Positions 44,330 to 58,111 of a stretch of 64,000 nt of DNA are shown here, piece after piece. The stretch is from Peribacillus frigoritolerans (GTDB taxonomy: Bacteria; Bacillota; Bacilli; Bacillales; DSM-1321). The notes beneath the pieces were generated by a model. That model did not search any database, was not told the DNA's origin, and saw only the letters and a list, made by a program, of their open reading frames with translations. Positions within the stretch are counted from its first letter, which is position 1. Every line of letters begins with the position of its first letter. The stretch spans positions 1,697,712-1,761,711 of the forward strand of contig NZ_KV440950.1 of NCBI RefSeq assembly GCF_001636405.1. The letters are read 5' to 3'. A program made the translations under genes and the position numbers.

Positions 44330-45537
44330 AATTTGATCATATAATTATCCGTTATGGAGAAATCTCCACTAAAAAAAGAAACCGTAAAGGCTTTGTAGAC
44401 AAAATGAAGGCACATATCCGCTGGAGTTTAAAAGATATAGAAGGCGTAGTGCTGACAGCCAACCGGGAGCGGATGTACGTTCTCCTGAACGGTGCTGACC
44501 ATGTGCCGGTCATTGACCGATTGAAAGGCATTTTTGGAATACAGTCATTAAGCCCTGCAATAAAAATAGAGCGTGATCTGGAAGTGATGAAAACGGCCGC
44601 ATTGTATTACCTTAATCATACCCTTGAAGAGGTAAACACGTTCAAAATCACGACAAAACGCGCCGATAAGGATTTTCCATATAATACCGATGAAATTAAC
44701 AGGGCAATCGGGGGGCATTTGCTCCGAAATACAGAAGATTTAAAAGTGGATGTAAAGAACCCAGATTTGAACCTGCTAGTGGAAGTGAGACGCGAAGCCG
44801 TGTATTTGACAGGTGAAATCATCCAGGGTGCAGGCGGTCTTCCATTCGGTTCAAGCGGGAAGGCGATGCTGATGCTTTCAGGCGGGATTGATAGCCCTGT
44901 TGCAGGATTCCTTTCGATGAAACGGGGTTTGGACGTGGAGGCGATCCATTTTTACAGCCCGCCGTTCACAAGCGAGCGTTCACGTCAAAAGGTCATTGAT
45001 TTGGCAGGCAAGCTGGCAGAAATAAATGGAAGCATGAAAGTGCATATCGTTCCATTTACGGAAATCCAATTATTGATTCAAAAACAAATCCCGGAAAACT
45101 ACTCAATGACTACAACCCGTCGTTTAATGATGCGGGTCGCCGATCGCATCCGTGAAAAGGAAGAAGCCATGGCACTGATCACCGGTGAAAGCCTTGGGCA
45201 GGTTGCAAGCCAGACGATGAGCAGCATGTTTGCCATCAATGAGGTGACGAATACACCGATCCTGCGTCCGCTGATTACCATGGATAAGACAGAAATCATC
45301 AAAATAGCAAGAGAACTCGATACTTTTGAAATATCCAATCTGCCGTACGAGGATTGCTGTACGGTCTTTACGCCGGCAAGCCCAAAAACGAAACCGAAAC
45401 GTGAAAAAGTCAATTACTATGAAAGCTTCGTCGACTTTGAATCCTTGATTGAAAAAGCGGTCTCCGAAACAGAAATATTAACGGTTAAACCGGGTCAGAC
45501 TTTCGATAAGGAAGAAGCGATGGAAGACTTATTCTAG
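44326..45537 (+). CDS. thiI: tRNA 4-thiouridine synthase ThiI
   Basis: 403 residues: N-terminal ferredoxin-like plus THUMP domains (to ~165), then a PP-loop ATPase with MLSGGIDSPVAGFL. The C-terminal rhodanese domain of E. coli ThiI is absent, which is normal in Bacillus. Uses persulfide sulfur from NifZ to make s4U8 in tRNA. A late CCTVF motif (YEDCCTVFTPASPKTKP) carries the conserved cysteine pair. Start overlaps nifZ by 4 nt. Confidence 0.97.
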   Translation: MKFDHIIIRYGEISTKKRNRKGFVDKMKAHIRWSLKDIEGVVLTANRERMYVLLNGADHVPVIDRLKGIFGIQSLSPAIKIERDLEVMKTAALYYLNHTLEEVNTFKITTKRADKDFPYNTDEINRAIGGHLLRNTEDLKVDVKNPDLNLLVEVRREAVYLTGEIIQGAGGLPFGSSGKAMLMLSGGIDSPVAGFLSMKRGLDVEAIHFYSPPFTSERSRQKVIDLAGKLAEINGSMKVHIVPFTEIQLLIQKQIPENYSMTTTRRLMMRVADRIREKEEAMALITGESLGQVASQTMSSMFAINEVTNTPILRPLITMDKTEIIKIARELDTFEISNLPYEDCCTVFTPASPKTKPKREKVNYYESFVDFESLIEKAVSETEILTVKPGQTFDKEEAMEDLF

Positions 45538-45565
45538 AATCCTTTAATTACCAATAAAAATGTGC

Positions 45566-45596
45566 GAATGAAGCCATGTGTTTTAACACACTCTAT
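45566..45596 (+). promoter_or_regulatory. Possible SigG promoter of sspA
   Basis: GAATGA followed ~18 nt later by CACTCTA, resembling the SigG pattern (TGAATA / CATACTA), 25 nt before the sspA start. sspA is a forespore gene, which supports the reading. Confidence 0.45.
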
Positions 45597-45619
45597 AATC
45601 ACAAGGAGGTGAAAAACAC

Positions 45620-45826
45620 ATGGCAAACAACAACAGCTCAAACGAATTATTGGTACCTGGAGTTGAACAAGCTCTACAACAAATGAAATATGAAATCGCT
45701 ACAGAATTCGGCGTGCAACTTGGTGCCGACACAACATCTCGCGCTAACGGTTCAGTTGGTGGAGAAATCACAAAACGCCTTGTTCAAATGGCTGAACAAC
45801 AATTAGGCGGAGGTTTCAACAGATAA
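45620..45826 (+). CDS. sspA: Small acid-soluble spore protein, alpha/beta type
   Basis: 68 residues. Signature elements: [28 protein letters not shown], where the GPR protease cuts within TEFGVQ, then [20 protein letters not shown]. Coats spore DNA, turning it to A-like form and protecting it from UV and heat; degraded at germination. AAGGAGGTG ribosome-binding site. Followed by a strong hairpin terminator. Confidence 0.97.
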
Positions 45827-45845
45827 TTTCATAAATATGGCTACA

Positions 45846-45875
45846 GAGAGCGGGTTTTAATACCCGCTCTCTTTA
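45846..45875 (+). terminator. Terminator after sspA
   Basis: AGAGAGCGGGT / ACCCGCTCTCT hairpin with T3. A diverged second copy sits at 47518, beyond the repeat array. Confidence 0.85.
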
Positions 45876-46027
45876 CGTTTGCGGAATTAATTCGTGGACG
45901 CCGATTTAATAAACTCTTAGCTTTACTACATAATTTTTTACTGTCTTATATAATATGAAACATTATTGGAATGAAGAAAAGTGCAACATTCCTGCTTGCC
46001 GAGACCCCACCGAAAGGGAGTATGTGT

Positions 46028-46121
46028 AATGACTTCCACTCCAGGCACTCGCTTTCCGCGGGCGGTCCGCCCTTGGCCACGCTTTTCCCGCAGGAGTCTC
46101 GTACCTTACGTTCCAATCAAC
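46028..46121 (-). repeat. GTTGATT repeat family, copy A (internally deleted)
   Basis: Both ends are present (GACTTCCACTCCAGGCACTCGC ... reading into ...TTCCAATCAAC), but the middle CCTCGGCG..GGGGTCTC block is missing. The right flank (CTGGAACTTCTTTTTTAAGAAA) equals that of copy C. Confidence 0.8.
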
Positions 46122-46142
46122 TGGAACTTCTTTTTTAAGAAA

Positions 46143-46361
46143 GGCTGTTTTCACATACTTTGTTGCTATTTACCAGGTAGTGAGTTGTGGTTGATTTCCA
46201 CTCCAGATGCTCGCTTTCCGCTGGGCGGGCGGTGAGCCTCCTCGGCGTAAACGCCTGTGGGGTCTCACCTGTCCCGCTGCTCCCGCAGGAGTCTCGCACT
46301 TCCGCTCCAATCAACCTTAAATAGACTCGTTTTAAAAACAACAATCTTTACGAAAAGAGCC
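46143..46361 (-). mobile_element. 219-bp MITE with 8-bp target duplication, copy B
   Basis: Ends are GGCTGTTTTC ... GAAAAGAGCC, an imperfect terminal inverted repeat (9/10 in the first ten bases, with TTGTTG shared further in). It is flanked on both sides by TTAAGAAA (46135-46142 and 46362-46369). The paralogous uninterrupted site TTTTTTAAGAAACATTG is at 46773-46790, an empty site. The core 46190-46315 is a GTTGATT-family repeat. No transposase. Five mismatches in 219 bp from the inverted copy at 57083. An 8-bp duplication and GGCT ends are compatible with ISL3-type transposases. Confidence 0.88.
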
Positions 46362-46635
46362 TTAAGAAACATTGTAGGGAAACTGCCTCTTTTTCTCCAA
46401 TTCGTCTACAGTCTGGCGGTTCCATCAATTTTCCGGCAAAAGGATTTCCGAATTGCTCTCGCCTCGAACCAAAATTTTAAAAGTAAACTAGATTATCCTT
46501 CAGTCCTTAAAGGATTGAAGAAAAGTGCGACACTCCTGACGAATAACTGGTTAGCCAAGACCCCGCAGGCGCTGCTTTGATGAGCTTGGCAGACAGTCAG
46601 TGGAAAGGGAACGGGTTTCTGAAAGTGGGTATGTG

Positions 46636-46761
46636 TAATGATTTCCACTCCAGGCACTCGCTTTCCGCGGGCGGTCCGTGAGCCTCCTCGGCGCTCGCCT
46701 GCGGGGTCTCCCTTGGCCACGCTTTTCCCGCAGGAGTCTCGTACCTTACGTTCCAATCAAC
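46636..46761 (-). repeat. GTTGATT repeat family, copy C
   Basis: Complete ~126-bp copy in minus orientation, between S1 and the second linker copy. Shares both flanks with copy A, so A and C arose by tandem duplication. Confidence 0.85.
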
Positions 46762-47517
46762 TGGAACTTCTTTTTTAAGAAACATTGTATGGAAACTGCC
46801 TCTTCTTCTCCAATTCGTCTACAGTCTGGCGGTTCCATCAATTTTCCGGCAAAAGGAGTTCCGAATTGCTCTCGCCCCGAACCAAAATTTTAAAGGTAAA
46901 CTAGATTACTCTTCATAGTTTTTATCAGTATTCCTTAAAGGGTTGAAGAGATGTGCGACACTTCTGCCAAATAACTGGTTACGCCAGGACCCCACAGGTG
47001 CTGCTTTGATGAGCTTGGCAGACAGTCAGTGGAAAGGGAACGGGTTTCTCAAATAAAACTGCAGGCTAGTCTCATCCCGAATTATGTTTAAGACTATTTA
47101 ATCCTTTAAGTTTTTTTCTGTAATCCTTAAAGGATGGAAGAGATGTGCGACACTCCTGCCGAATAACTGGCTAGCCAAGACCCCACAGGCGCTTGCGCCG
47201 AGGAGGCTTGGCAGACAGTCGGCGGAAAGGGAGCGGATCTCTGAAATCAACTGGAATGTTTTCTTGAAAAAACCGTAGGCTAGTCTCAGCTATGTTTAGA
47301 CTAGTTAATCCTTTAAGTTTTTTTCAGTAATCCTTAAAGGGTTGAAAAAAAGTGCGACACACCTGCCGAATAACTGGGTAGCCGAGACCCCACAGGCGCA
47401 TGCTTTGATGAGGCTTGGCAGACAGTCGGCGGAGAGGGAACGGGTTTCGAAAATCAGCGGAATTTTTAAAAAGAAAAACTGAAGGCAAACTCACTTTAGG
47501 AATTGTCTACAGGCTAT

Positions 47518-47550
47518 AAGGGAGCGGATTCCTACACCCGCTCTCTTTTT
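47518..47550 (+). terminator. Second, diverged copy of the sspA terminator
   Basis: GAGCGG / CCGCTC hairpin with TCTTTTTT. The context GGCTATAAGGGAGCGG...ACCCGCTCTCTTT parallels the sspA terminator GGCTACAGAGAGCGG...ACCCGCTCTCTTT. Confidence 0.65.
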
Positions 47551-47635
47551 TAATTTGTAAAAATAAATAGAAATTTTAGAGAAGTATCTTGTATAATGAG
47601 TAGGTACTAAGAGTTCATAATTGGAGGGGAAGAAT

Positions 47636-49219
47636 ATGAAGCGTGAAGACTTATTGGCTCCGGAACATTACAACTTAGTGAGTGAAATGGAACGTTATGC
47701 AAAAGATCCAGGTAAAGTTGCCGTACTTTGGGAGAACGAAACCGGAGATAAAAAACAACTTACATATGAGAATTTATTAAAAAGTGCAAATAAAATTGGA
47801 AATGCCTTCAAGAAAAAAGGACTGGGTAAAGGTGATACGGTCCTCATCATAATCCCCCGTTTGGTGGAAGCTTATCAAGTGTATTTAGCAGCATTGAAAA
47901 TTGGCATGATTGTCATCCCTTGTTCTGAAATGCTTCGTGCGAAGGACTTGCAGTACCGAGTCAACCATGGTGATGTCAAAGGAATCATCAGTTATCATGA
48001 ATATACTGACGAATTGAATGAAATAGAAGGAGCGGAAAGCCTCCTGAAGTTTTCAATCGGAAAACGAATCGAAAATTGGCTGGATTTGAATGAGCTCGCC
48101 GATGAGGAATCCGATCAGCTGACCATCGCTGACACGAAGAGTGAGGATATGGCATTCTTATCGTATACTTCCGGAACGACAGGAAATCCAAAAGGGGTCG
48201 TCCATACACATGGATGGGCTTATGCCCATTTGAAAACGTCCGCTGCAAACTGGCTCGGGATCAGCGAAACGGATGTCGTTTGGGCAACGGCAGGCCCAGG
48301 GTGGCAAAAGTGGATCTGGAGTCCTTTCCTGGCGGTTCTGGGAACAGGAGCGACAGGCCTTGCCTATCATGGAAAGTTCGAGGCGAAAAAATATCTTCAG
48401 CTGCTACAGGACTACAAAGTGAATGCATTATGCTGCACGCCCACCGAATATCGATTGATTGCAAAGGTGGATAACCTTGATGATTATGATTTATCCCATC
48501 TTCACAGTGCTGTATCGGCGGGAGAGCCTTTAAATCAAAAAGTGTTCGAGGTCTTTAAGAACCATTTCCAGATTGAAGTGCGTGATGGGTATGGACAGAC
48601 CGAAAATACCTTGTTGGTTGGTGTAACGAAAGGCATGGAAATTAAATTGGGCTCCATGGGCAAACCGACTCCGGGCAACCATGTGGAAATCATCGATGAC
48701 TCCGGTAAACCTTGTTCGCCTGGCGTAGTGGGGGATATTGCCGTACATGTCGATACACCTGCTCTCTTTAAAGAATATTTTAAAGATCCCGAGCGGACAT
48801 CGCAGCAATTCCGCGGGGACTATTATATCACCGGCGATCAAGCGAAAAAGGATGAGGATGGTTATTTCTGGTTTGAGGGTCGTTCTGATGATATCATCAT
48901 CAGTTCGGGATATACGATCGGACCGTTTGAAGTGGAAGATGCACTCGTTAAGCATCCATATGTTAAAGAGTGTGCCGTTATAGCAAGTCCTGATGAAATA
49001 AGGGGAAATGTGGTCAAGGCGTATGTCGTCTTGATGGATGATATCGATCCGAACAGCCAGGACTTGATCAAGACGCTTCAATCGCACGTGAAAGAATTGA
49101 CTGCTCCATATAAATATCCAAGGAAAATCGAATTTTTAGAAGAGCTGCCCAAAACGACATCTGGTAAAATCAAACGGGTGGATTTACGGAAAAGGGAAGA
49201 AGCACTCCTTAACAATTGA
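47636..49219 (+). CDS. mbcS: Medium/branched-chain acyl-CoA synthetase MbcS
   Basis: 527 residues, AMP-forming acyl-CoA synthetase. ATG 47636 follows GGAGGGGA (5 nt); a TTG at 47621 overlaps it. Motifs: YTSGTTGNPKGVVHTHGW near 180, DGYGQTEN, YYITGDQAKKDEDGYFWFEGRSDD, and PKTTSGKIKR with the catalytic lysine at the end. MbcS/YtcI activates branched or medium-chain acids such as isobutyrate and 2-methylbutyrate for membrane lipid synthesis. A TATAAT at 47592 may be its -10, without a clear -35. Ended by a hairpin terminator. Confidence 0.92.
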   Translation: MKREDLLAPEHYNLVSEMERYAKDPGKVAVLWENETGDKKQLTYENLLKSANKIGNAFKKKGLGKGDTVLIIIPRLVEAYQVYLAALKIGMIVIPCSEMLRAKDLQYRVNHGDVKGIISYHEYTDELNEIEGAESLLKFSIGKRIENWLDLNELADEESDQLTIADTKSEDMAFLSYTSGTTGNPKGVVHTHGWAYAHLKTSAANWLGISETDVVWATAGPGWQKWIWSPFLAVLGTGATGLAYHGKFEAKKYLQLLQDYKVNALCCTPTEYRLIAKVDNLDDYDLSHLHSAVSAGEPLNQKVFEVFKNHFQIEVRDGYGQTENTLLVGVTKGMEIKLGSMGKPTPGNHVEIIDDSGKPCSPGVVGDIAVHVDTPALFKEYFKDPERTSQQFRGDYYITGDQAKKDEDGYFWFEGRSDDIIISSGYTIGPFEVEDALVKHPYVKECAVIASPDEIRGNVVKAYVVLMDDIDPNSQDLIKTLQSHVKELTAPYKYPRKIEFLEELPKTTSGKIKRVDLRKREEALLNN

Positions 49220-56274: not shown

Positions 56275-57045
56275 TTGAGAATCATCGACAGCCATATCCA
56301 TTTGGATAAGTATGATATTGATAAGCGGAAGCAGATCCTGAAAGACATGGAAAAGGTTCAGTTGGAATCCTTGCTGACTGTTTCCATGAATTTGGCTTCT
56401 TCGATTAACAATTATCAACTTTCACTTAAAGATTCACGAATTAAGCCTGCCTTTGGTTTTCATCCAGAGCAGCCCCTCCCGAGTAATGAAGAAGTGAATG
56501 AATTATTGAGTTGGATGCGGGAACATCGTCACGATATGGTTGCCATAGGCGAGGTTGGGCTGCCCTATTACTTAAGGCAGGAAAACCCCAATATTGATAA
56601 CTCAGCATATATAGTGATACTGGAGAGGTTCCTGGCCTTAGCTAAAGAGATTGAAAAGCCGGTTATCCTTCATGCCGTCCATGACGATGCACCTATCGTT
56701 TGCGACCTTTTGGACAAGCATCAAATCACAAGGGCACACTTTCATTGGTTTAAAGGCGATATCCGGATAGTTGAAAGAATGGCCAAAAAGGGCTACCGCA
56801 TTTCGATTACACCTGATGTATGTTATGAGAGGGAAATACAGGAATTAGTTTCGGCCTATCCACTTAAGCTGATGATGATAGAAACGGATGGACCATGGCC
56901 GTTTGAAGGGGTTTTCAATGGGGAATGGACCCATCCCGGCATGATGCATGAAAGTGTGCGTCAAATTGCTTCGATTAAAGGATTGCCGATTGAGGATGTC
57001 TATGAAGCCCTTTATCAAAATACGAAAGATTTTTATCATATATAA
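56275..57045 (+). CDS. TatD family metal-dependent hydrolase in the thiamine operon
   Basis: 256 residues, TTG start at 56275 after AAGGAGGCGATACCA. TatD/amidohydrolase barrel with DSHIHLDKYD, FGFHPEQP, AIGEVGLPYY, LHAVHDDAP, RAHFHWFKG, and the late Asp in MIETDGPWP. Last gene of the TPP-riboswitch operon, 18 nt after the ATPase. TatD proteins are usually DNases, but operon context suggests processing of the imported pyrimidine, e.g. deformylation (inference). Confidence 0.85.
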   Translation: MRIIDSHIHLDKYDIDKRKQILKDMEKVQLESLLTVSMNLASSINNYQLSLKDSRIKPAFGFHPEQPLPSNEEVNELLSWMREHRHDMVAIGEVGLPYYLRQENPNIDNSAYIVILERFLALAKEIEKPVILHAVHDDAPIVCDLLDKHQITRAHFHWFKGDIRIVERMAKKGYRISITPDVCYEREIQELVSAYPLKLMMIETDGPWPFEGVFNGEWTHPGMMHESVRQIASIKGLPIEDVYEALYQNTKDFYHI

Positions 57046-57077
57046 AGGTACCGGTTATCATATCCGGTACCTTTTTT
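57044..57077 (+). terminator. Terminator of the thiamine operon
   Basis: AAAGGTACCGG / CCGGTACCTTT perfect 11-bp stem and T6. The downstream MITE target duplication begins in this T-run. Confidence 0.92.
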
Positions 57078-57082
57078 CGTTT

Positions 57083-57301
57083 GGCTCTTTTCGTAAAGAT
57101 TGTTGTTTTTAAAACGAAACTATTTAAGGTTGATTGGAGCGGAAGTGCGAGACTCCTGCGGGAGCAGCGGGAGAGGTGAGACCCCACAGGCGTTTACGCC
57201 GAGGAGGCTCACCGCCCGCCCCGCGGAAAGCGAGCATCTGGAGTGGAAATCAACCACAACTCACTACCTGGTAAATAGCAACAAATTATGTGAAAACAGC
57301 C
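57083..57301 (+). mobile_element. 219-bp MITE with 8-bp target duplication, copy D
   Basis: Ends GGCTCTTTTC ... GAAAACAGCC. Perfect flanking 8-bp repeats TTTCGTTT at 57075-57082 and 57302-57309. The core 57129-57254 is a GTTGATT-family repeat that can fold by GCGAGACTCCTGC / GCAGG-type pairings. About 98% identical to the inverted copy at 46143-46361. Inserted between the thiamine-operon terminator and the end of nadK; the right target repeat overlaps the last two bases of the nadK stop codon, leaving the gene intact. Confidence 0.92.
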
Positions 57302-57307
57302 TTTCGT

Positions 57308-58111
57308 TTAAAGAAAGGTCCTTTTAACCTTTTCCCAAAAGGAATTGTCTTTTAGCTTAACGGTCTTGATGACCTTACCGCTTAACCGGACCTTTACCTT
57401 TTCGACATGATTGATGCTTAACGCTTCATTGTCCATTCCGACGATCGGATAGCTTGGTCCGTTTTGTTCAAGGTGGACGGTCAACGTCTTAGCACCGCTT
57501 AAGATGAATGAGGAGCCTAGGGTCCGATAGGTATTATTATTGACGGAAGCAAGCTCGCTCACTTGGAAGCAAGGGAGAAGGGGATCGACAACGGCCCCAT
57601 TGACCGATTTATTATAGGCGGTGCTTCCGGTCGGAGTCGCAATGATGATCCCGTCCCCGCGAAAAGTTTCAAAATGGAGTTGATCAATGAAAATATCCAT
57701 GATGAACGTTTTGGTGATCGAAGAGCGGATACTGAGTTCATTAAGGGCATAGAAGGAGGGCTGATCGTCCAATTGGATAGAGATGGTTGGATATTTGCGC
57801 ACCTCGATTTGCTCCCTTGTCATGGCATCAATCATTTTATCACTGTCTTCCAAGTGGAAATCGCAATACATATTCAAGTTACCTGTCGTGGAAATGCCCG
57901 CATATAAACAGTCATCCCTGAACCCGGTTTTACGGGCTGCCTGCAGGAATGTGCCGTCATCACCGATGCTTACGATGATGTTCGCTTTTGTGAAATCCTG
58001 GATGACTTCATACGAATGTTGCTTCGCCAAGTCTGATAAGTATTCAACCTTGCTGAGCATCTCTGCATTCGGTGCATGGAAAAAATAAATATTCCTTCGA
58101 TTGTTCATCAT
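57308..58111 (-). CDS. ppnKB: NAD kinase (NadK2/YtdI)
   Basis: 267 residues, same length as B. subtilis YtdI. Makes NADP from NAD and ATP. SIGDDGTFLQAAR is the GxDG catalytic loop (Asp-Asp-Gly here rather than the usual Gly-Asp-Gly), then GISTTGNLNMYCDF, NELSIRSS and ATPTGSTAYNKS. Starts MMNNRRN; either Met is usable, with AGGGGGG upstream. The stop codon abuts the MITE target duplication. Confidence 0.92.
   Translation of the reverse strand: MMNNRRNIYFFHAPNAEMLSKVEYLSDLAKQHSYEVIQDFTKANIIVSIGDDGTFLQAARKTGFRDDCLYAGISTTGNLNMYCDFHLEDSDKMIDAMTREQIEVRKYPTISIQLDDQPSFYALNELSIRSSITKTFIMDIFIDQLHFETFRGDGIIIATPTGSTAYNKSVNGAVVDPLLPCFQVSELASVNNNTYRTLGSSFILSGAKTLTVHLEQNGPSYPIVGMDNEALSINHVEKVKVRLSGKVIKTVKLKDNSFWEKVKRTFL

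What the first reader, a model, noticed from the sequence alone, without database searches (positions are those of the whole stretch)
46143..46361. 219-bp MITE with perfect 8-bp target duplication and a visible empty site
The element has ends GGCTGTTTTC...GAAAAGAGCC and is flanked by TTAAGAAA on both sides. The same locus without the insert exists 0.4 kb downstream (TTTTTTAAGAAACATTG at 46773-46790), because the host region was tandemly duplicated. This gives insertion, target duplication and empty site in one window. The core is the widespread GTTGATT...AATCAAC intergenic repeat, suggesting that at least one subfamily of that repeat spreads by transposition. The 8-bp duplication and GGCT ends point to an ISL3-like transposase in trans (inference).
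Basis: partly seen in the sequence, partly recalled or inferred. Interest (0 to 1): 0.72.

Follow-up and report, generated by a model that had tools for sequence, protein, structure and literature searches.

The report
IS1595-type MITE carrying shared hairpin
A 219-base mobile DNA element, present in 35 full-length copies in this bacterial genome, has the ends of a known transposon family (IS1595) and carries a conserved hairpin that also sits inside other, unrelated transposons of related bacteria.

Summary
46143-46361 is a MITE. The own genome has 35 full-length copies (92-100% identical); 27 of 35 have exact 8-bp A/T-rich target duplications, the other 8 have 1-2 mismatches, and re-paired flanks give about 0.9 exact matches. 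The in-window empty site is real. The second window copy (57083-57301) is absent from the orthologous site in 20 of 20 relatives examined.

The ISL3 inference is not supported. No ISL3 transposase was found in this genome, and the ISL3 elements I could delimit have other ends. Matching autonomous elements are IS1595-family, with GGCTSTTTTC...TTGTTG ends and 8-bp duplications; end type follows the transposase clade (10 B, 13 A, one branch, 100/100). No such transposase was found in this genome, so mobilisation in trans is inferred.

Beyond the finding: (1) the core occurs with at least three kinds of ends (IS1595 B, IS1595 A, IS1182-type) and folds into a hairpin with compensatory changes; (2) 17 of 35 copies lie beside a strong hairpin, against 11.6% of control sites. 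The MITE is a known kind; the shared core is unusual.

The parts
46143..46361 (+). 219-bp MITE (the finding)
46143..46188 (+). left end of the MITE, IS1595 type B (GGCTGTTTTC...TTTGTTGC) with subterminal sequence
46189..46316 (+). core: conserved GC-rich hairpin GGTTGATT...AATCAACC, shared with other transposon types
46317..46361 (-). right end of the MITE, IS1595 type B (GGCTCTTTTCGTAAAGATTGTTG when read inwards)
   Evidence: consensus right end 27 of 28 identical to an autonomous IS1595 end, L175
46135..46142 (.). target site duplication TTAAGAAA, left copy
46362..46369 (.). target site duplication TTAAGAAA, right copy
46775..46782 (.). paralogous empty site, single TTAAGAAA
46404..46415 (-). 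IS1182-type end motif CAGACTGTAGAC in the host region
   Evidence: same motif as in most of L207-L216 and, within 2 mismatches, in 25 of 40 non-MITE core loci of the own genome
46817..46828 (-). same IS1182-type end motif in the second unit of the host duplication
57083..57301 (-). second copy of the MITE in the window, target duplication TTTCGTTT at 57075-57082 and 57302-57309
   Evidence: orthologous site empty in 20 of 20 genomes examined
57044..57077 (+). terminator-like hairpin (AAAGGTACCGG...CCGGTACCTTTTTT) at whose T tract the second copy inserted
   Evidence: copy L011

Best explanation
The element is a non-autonomous derivative (MITE) of an IS1595-family transposon of one transposase clade, here called type B. 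The clade's transposase recognises the two GGCTSTTTTC-N7-TTGTTG ends and inserts the element into A/T-rich sites, duplicating 8 bp. The sites are often the T tract or A tract beside a terminator-like hairpin. Between the ends the MITE has no gene; it carries a 128-bp GC-rich hairpin core. The same core is found inside other elements of the order: MITEs with the ends of a second IS1595 clade (type A), and elements with IS1182-type ends. So the core looks like a passenger module exchanged between unrelated transposons. Shown: ends, duplications, empty sites, copy number, match of end type to transposase clade, three kinds of carrier, conserved fold. Inferred: that a type-B transposase moved these copies in trans, that it has since been lost from this genome, and that the core moved between carriers by recombination.
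For: Ends and 8-bp duplications in the own genome. Autonomous element in Niallia (L137): 1765 bp, B ends, exact TTTAAAAA duplication, IS1595 transposase (NF033547, 206.6 bits against a cut-off of 75) plus a DinB-type passenger gene. Of 60 IS1595 loci examined (some overlap each other), 30 elements could be delimited with a duplication of at most one mismatch: 14 with B ends, 16 with A ends, none with one of each; in two of them (L149, L183) one end fitted neither rule. The 23 with a transposase frame of 250 codons or more fall on the two sides of one branch by end type, 100/100. MITE ends are closer to B ends (mean best 23.5 of 28 over 28 ends) than to A ends (17.2 of 28 over 32 ends) (type B was itself named by part of this motif). 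A same-genus genome with the MITE (G030, 15 matches) has two open transposases (345-codon frames, 65% identical to P0001), each with a B end without mismatch about 80 bp before the gene. Polymorphic insertion: the second window copy is absent in 20 of 20 relatives examined. The end motif is found in 149 of 397 genomes of the order; the reversed control pattern hit 4.
Against: No IS1595 transposase was found in the own genome: 0 for PF12762 at E 1e-3 and 0 for P0001 at E 1e-10. Some end-rich genomes, such as G167 (117 end matches) and G391 (114), are not among the genomes with a match either. Trans mobilisation is therefore not shown in any one genome. For the two G030 transposases I could not establish the far end or a duplication. 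The G033 element (L165) has an interrupted transposase. Only 6 of 29 end-motif loci from other genomes showed a partner end with a duplication of at most one mismatch. For the core, 27 of 45 distinct loci had none of the three kinds of ends at the strictness used.
Confidence: 0.9

Rival explanations
1. The MITE is mobilised by an ISL3-family transposase in trans.
For: ISL3 elements of the same genus also make 8-bp, mostly A/T-rich duplications and begin GGCTCT, with TTTGTTG further in.
Against: No PF01610 match in the own genome. 11 of 36 genus genomes have one, but none of G003, G005, G024, G030, G031, G033, which carry the MITE with best identities of 95-97%. 22 of 30 end-rich genomes have none. 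Delimited ISL3 ends differ after the first six bases.
Confidence: 0.04
2. The 219-bp unit is a fixed repeat copied by recombination or gene conversion between intergenic repeats, not by transposition.
For: Core sequences recur in local tandem duplications, as in the window itself.
Against: 27 of 35 copies have exact 8-bp duplications that differ from copy to copy, with orthologous empty sites in 20 of 20 relatives for one copy and a paralogous empty site for the other.
Confidence: 0.02
3. The core itself is the mobile unit (a REP-like element) and the IS1595 ends are only where it happens to sit.
For: Core in 101 of 150 genomes; 177 core-pattern matches against 35 MITE copies in the own genome; many cores without recognised ends.
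Against: In the 219-bp copies homology and duplications stop at the IS1595 ends, not at the core. 25 of 40 non-MITE cores of the own genome have an IS1182-type end motif nearby. I did not look for a core-specific mobility protein.
Confidence: 0.08

Closest known systems
IS1595 family (PF12762, NF033547; Siguier, Gagnevin and Chandler 2009, seen here only in reference lists; family features from passages of PMC8101967)
   Same: 8-bp duplications, ends beginning GG, transposase with DDE_Tnp_IS1595 domain and N-terminal zinc-binding domain in the autonomous relatives
   Different: the 219-bp element encodes no transposase and carries a hairpin core; ISfinder subgroup not assigned here
ISApl4 (IS1016 subgroup of IS1595; PMC12561309, passages seen)
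   Same: 8-bp, preferably A/T-rich direct repeats
   Different: autonomous 712-bp IS with GGGGCTGTACTAGA ends
IS1182 family (NF033551)
   Same: IS1182-type elements of the genus contain the same core ahead of the transposase gene (L326, L327; start of the gene also in several of L207-L216)
   Different: different ends (CAGACTGTAGAC) and another transposase; only the core is shared
bcr1 and the Bhal-1/Bhal-2 stem-loop repeat families of Bacillus (PMC2267715, passages seen)
   Same: multicopy stem-loop repeats of Bacillus
   Different: not compared at sequence level here; no link to IS1595 in the passages seen

Membership tests
MITE (non-autonomous inverted-repeat element) | short, multicopy, sharp terminal inverted repeats | tested here: met
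   35 full-length copies of about 219 bp; consensus ends share 20 of the first 28 positions
MITE (non-autonomous inverted-repeat element) | target site duplications and empty sites | tested here: met
   27 of 35 exact 8 bp; empty sites
MITE (non-autonomous inverted-repeat element) | no transposase gene inside | tested here: met
   219 bp; frames of 80 codons or more only run across its borders
IS1595-derived, type B | terminal sequences match autonomous IS1595 elements | tested here: met
IS1595-derived, type B | 8-bp target duplication | tested here: met
   also in the 14 delimited type-B elements, by the rule used to delimit them
IS1595-derived, type B | IS1595 transposase with matching ends exists in the genus or order | tested here: met
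   L137, 12 of L175-L195, near G030 genes, and a broken one in G033
IS1595-derived, type B | source transposase present in the same genome | tested here: not met
   0 matches in G000
IS1595-derived, type B | transposition in trans by that transposase | not testable with these tools
   needs an assay
IS1595 family | assignment to one of the named ISfinder subgroups | not tested
   ISfinder is not available here
ISL3-derived | terminal sequences match autonomous ISL3 elements | tested here: not met
ISL3-derived | ISL3 transposase in the genome | tested here: not met
Known Rfam RNA family (core) | match to a curated covariance model | tested here: not met
   window 45500-47650: two weak matches below gathering score, neither over the core

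The most novel reading that the evidence does not exclude
The core is a selected, structured hairpin module (active as RNA or as single-stranded DNA) that has been taken up independently by at least three transposon systems with different ends. It has spread through these bacteria because it helps the elements, for example by shielding them from read-through transcription or by making insertions at terminators tolerable to the host.
Probability: 0.3. Interest if true: 0.75.

Novelty: new variant of a known kind. Interest (0 to 1): 0.55.

Why it matters
It names the transposon family behind one subfamily of a very common intergenic repeat and corrects the guess of ISL3. It gives clean insertion and empty-site pairs for dating. 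It also poses a testable question: why is one folded core carried by two IS1595 end types and by IS1182-type elements, and why do these elements land beside terminators? Genome annotators could treat GGCTSTTTTC-ended repeats as IS1595 MITEs.

Tried and rejected
ISL3 source: rejected. In one search a second candidate pair (L123, another kind of ends) was not followed. Search for an autonomous partner by ORFs beside lone ends in other genomes: no clear result; the plasmid search gave it. Rfam for the core: nothing. Literature: 10 searches. No title or abstract start in the listings told of an IS1595 MITE of Bacillus; the string GAGACTCCTGCGGGA gave 0 papers, and IS1595 with Peribacillus gave 0. 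Only passages were seen of PMC2267715, PMC10969869 (0 occurrences of IS1595 and of Bacillus), PMC12561309, PMC8101967, PMC9208149 and PMC3281130; most subscription papers are not held. Strand preference of the core fold: the reverse strand is more stable in 27 of 29, and G-U against A-C cells are 14 to 3 (p 0.013), but by pairs only 9 to 3 (p 0.15), so I do not claim an RNA. An origin of the core's GTTGATT from the type-A inverted repeat (same register in L217, L218, L224, L245) is an idea only; not tested.

Full report
What is there. Window 46143-46361 is a 219-bp element flanked by TTAAGAAA on both sides. The host region is tandemly duplicated: 46070-46142 equals 46710-46782 (100%), and 46362-46502 matches 46775-46915 (95%).

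It is a MITE. The own genome (G000, 5.46 Mb) has 35 full-length matches at 92-100% identity, mean pairwise identity 95%. I fetched these and three damaged copies with 200-bp flanks. Of the 35, 27 have exact 8-bp duplications, 5 have one mismatch and 3 have two; shuffled partners gave 0.9 exact on average and 5 at most in 2000 shuffles. The three damaged copies were left out of that count (5, 4 and 1 mismatches at the boundaries). No duplication is exact over 9 bp. Duplications are 91% A/T, with T-rich bases before and A-rich bases after. Shortened copies exist: 134 bp end to end at G000:C1:3808459-3808592 (L088) and 162 bp (L047).

Insertion is polymorphic. The second window copy, 57083-57301 (minus strand), has duplication TTTCGTTT. 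Its left flank matches 30 of 36 genus genomes, own included. I aligned both flanks in the 20 other genomes with the best matches; 9 weaker ones were not examined. All 20 lack the insert. G024, with 96% identical flank, shows a single TTTCGTTT.

The transposase is not ISL3. PF01610 has no match in G000, is in 11 of 36 genus genomes, and in 8 of 30 end-rich genomes. Of 30 ISL3 loci I examined 15; 11 could be delimited and have GGCTCTAT and GGTTCTCC ends. Of 18 loci one clear case (L121) has the same kind of ends.

It is IS1595. The end pattern GGCTNTTTTCN7TTGTTG, with one further base chosen so that the 76 ends read would not match, occurs in 149 of 397 genomes and 58 of 135 genera of the order; the reversed control hit 4 genomes. 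Among 29 such loci, 6 had a partner end and a duplication of at most one mismatch, giving short elements of 163-473 bp. A plasmid search with a 30-base end led to Niallia NZ_CP095746.1: a 1765-bp element with both ends, exact duplication TTTAAAAA, a DinB-type gene and an IS1595 transposase. With that protein (P0001) as query, 142 of 397 genomes match. Of 60 IS1595 loci examined, some overlapping, 30 elements could be delimited: 14 with these (type B) ends, 16 with GGCTNTGTTAAA...TGTTGAT (type A) ends, none with one of each; L149 and L183 have one end that fits neither rule. A tree of the 23 with a transposase frame of 250 codons or more splits by end type at one branch, support 100/100. The consensus right end of the MITE is identical in 27 of 28 positions to an autonomous end (L175). 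Of the 23, 18 have a further frame of 80 codons or more inside the element. Of ten such frames scanned, five matched well-known folds (ankyrin, HAD, alpha/beta hydrolase, 2'-5' RNA ligase, GNAT), one DUF6176 and four nothing.

Weak point. No IS1595 transposase was found in G000 by family or by P0001. In the genus, G030 has both the MITE and two open transposases with a B end without mismatch before each, but their far ends and duplications were not established. G033 has a delimited type-B element with an interrupted transposase. So movement in trans, followed by loss of the source, is an inference.

Where it lands. Of 35 copies, 17 have a hairpin of -10 kcal/mol or better in the 40 bases on one side, against 11.6% of 1497 A/T-rich intergenic 8-mers of the window and 11 of 105 stretches 60-140 bases away from the same copies. 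Reading the flanks, many of these look like terminators, with the MITE in the T tract or A tract. The control sites overlap each other and come from one 64-kb window.

The core has several carriers. The 128-bp core matches 101 of 150 genomes and 56 of 83 genera. In G000 an 18-base core pattern matches 177 times, control 0, against 35 MITE copies. I examined 45 distinct core loci (50 listed, 5 repeated): 20 that I picked, largely matches to the core only, and the 30 loci returned. Of the 45, 4 have type-B ends on both sides (at most 2 mismatches), 5 have type-A ends on both sides (at most 4; exact duplications TATGCAAA in L218 and ATTGTATA in L224), and 9 have an IS1182-type end CAGACTGTAGAC about 60-75 bp ahead; the other 27 had no such set at this strictness. 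The IS1182 reading rests on the transposase start in L326 (211 residues, 215.7 bits to NF033551, below its whole-protein cut-off of 270; DUF772 in Pfam). Of 40 non-MITE core loci of G000, 25 have CAGACTGTAGAC within two mismatches nearby; the 64-kb window has 3 such matches, 2 of them beside this finding.

The core is folded. On 29 cores, chosen as best hits of different genomes, 99.2% of cells in a 34-pair structure are paired. Nine pairs show changes on both sides (shuffles 2.5, none of 500 as high), and slid controls give 0 or 1. The structure was derived from the same alignment, and palindrome correction between the arms could also make such changes, so this shows a kept hairpin, not its function. 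Within G000 the core is also more conserved (98.0%) than the ends (93.8% and 96.3%).

How it works, most likely. A type-B IS1595 transposase binds the two ends, and cuts and joins them at A/T-rich sites, often beside terminators, with 8-bp stagger. Steps shown: ends, stagger, sites, empty sites, matching autonomous family. Steps inferred: the protein acting in trans, its loss here, and the route by which the core passed between carriers.

Novelty. An IS1595 MITE is a known kind. The sharing of one folded core by two IS1595 end types and IS1182-type elements, and the terminator sites, were not met in the listings and passages seen (10 searches listed under Tried and rejected); that is a limited search.

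Noticed in passing
L287, L291, L311, L312, L314, L315, L321-L324, L220 (own genome): IS1182-type core elements start (CAGACTGTAGAC) directly after the stem of a host terminator-like hairpin: 14 of 18 distinct starts have an upstream 40-base fold of -7 kcal/mol or better (29.5% of 2400 control stretches), and in 13 of 18 the stem ends within 6 bases of the start (22.5% of controls). In several copies the end itself is a hairpin followed by a T run, as if one terminator replaced another.
   Followed up: partly
L137, L176, L178, L186, L196, L150 and others: IS1595 elements of these bacteria often carry a different passenger gene beside the transposase (DinB-type, HAD, alpha/beta hydrolase, 2'-5' RNA ligase, GNAT, ankyrin).
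   Followed up: partly
46493-47400: Four diverged copies of another repeat unit (CCTTAAAGG...GTGCGACACTCCTG...) lie just downstream of the MITE; origin not traced.
   Followed up: no
L217, L218, L224, L245: In type-A MITEs the core's first GTTGATT lies in the same register as the TGTTGATT of the autonomous type-A inverted repeat, which hints that the core may have begun as a type-A MITE.
   Followed up: no
G000:C1:1888518, 2049479, 3278540 and the window copy: Four MITE copies lie within about 250 bp of another core copy.
   Followed up: no
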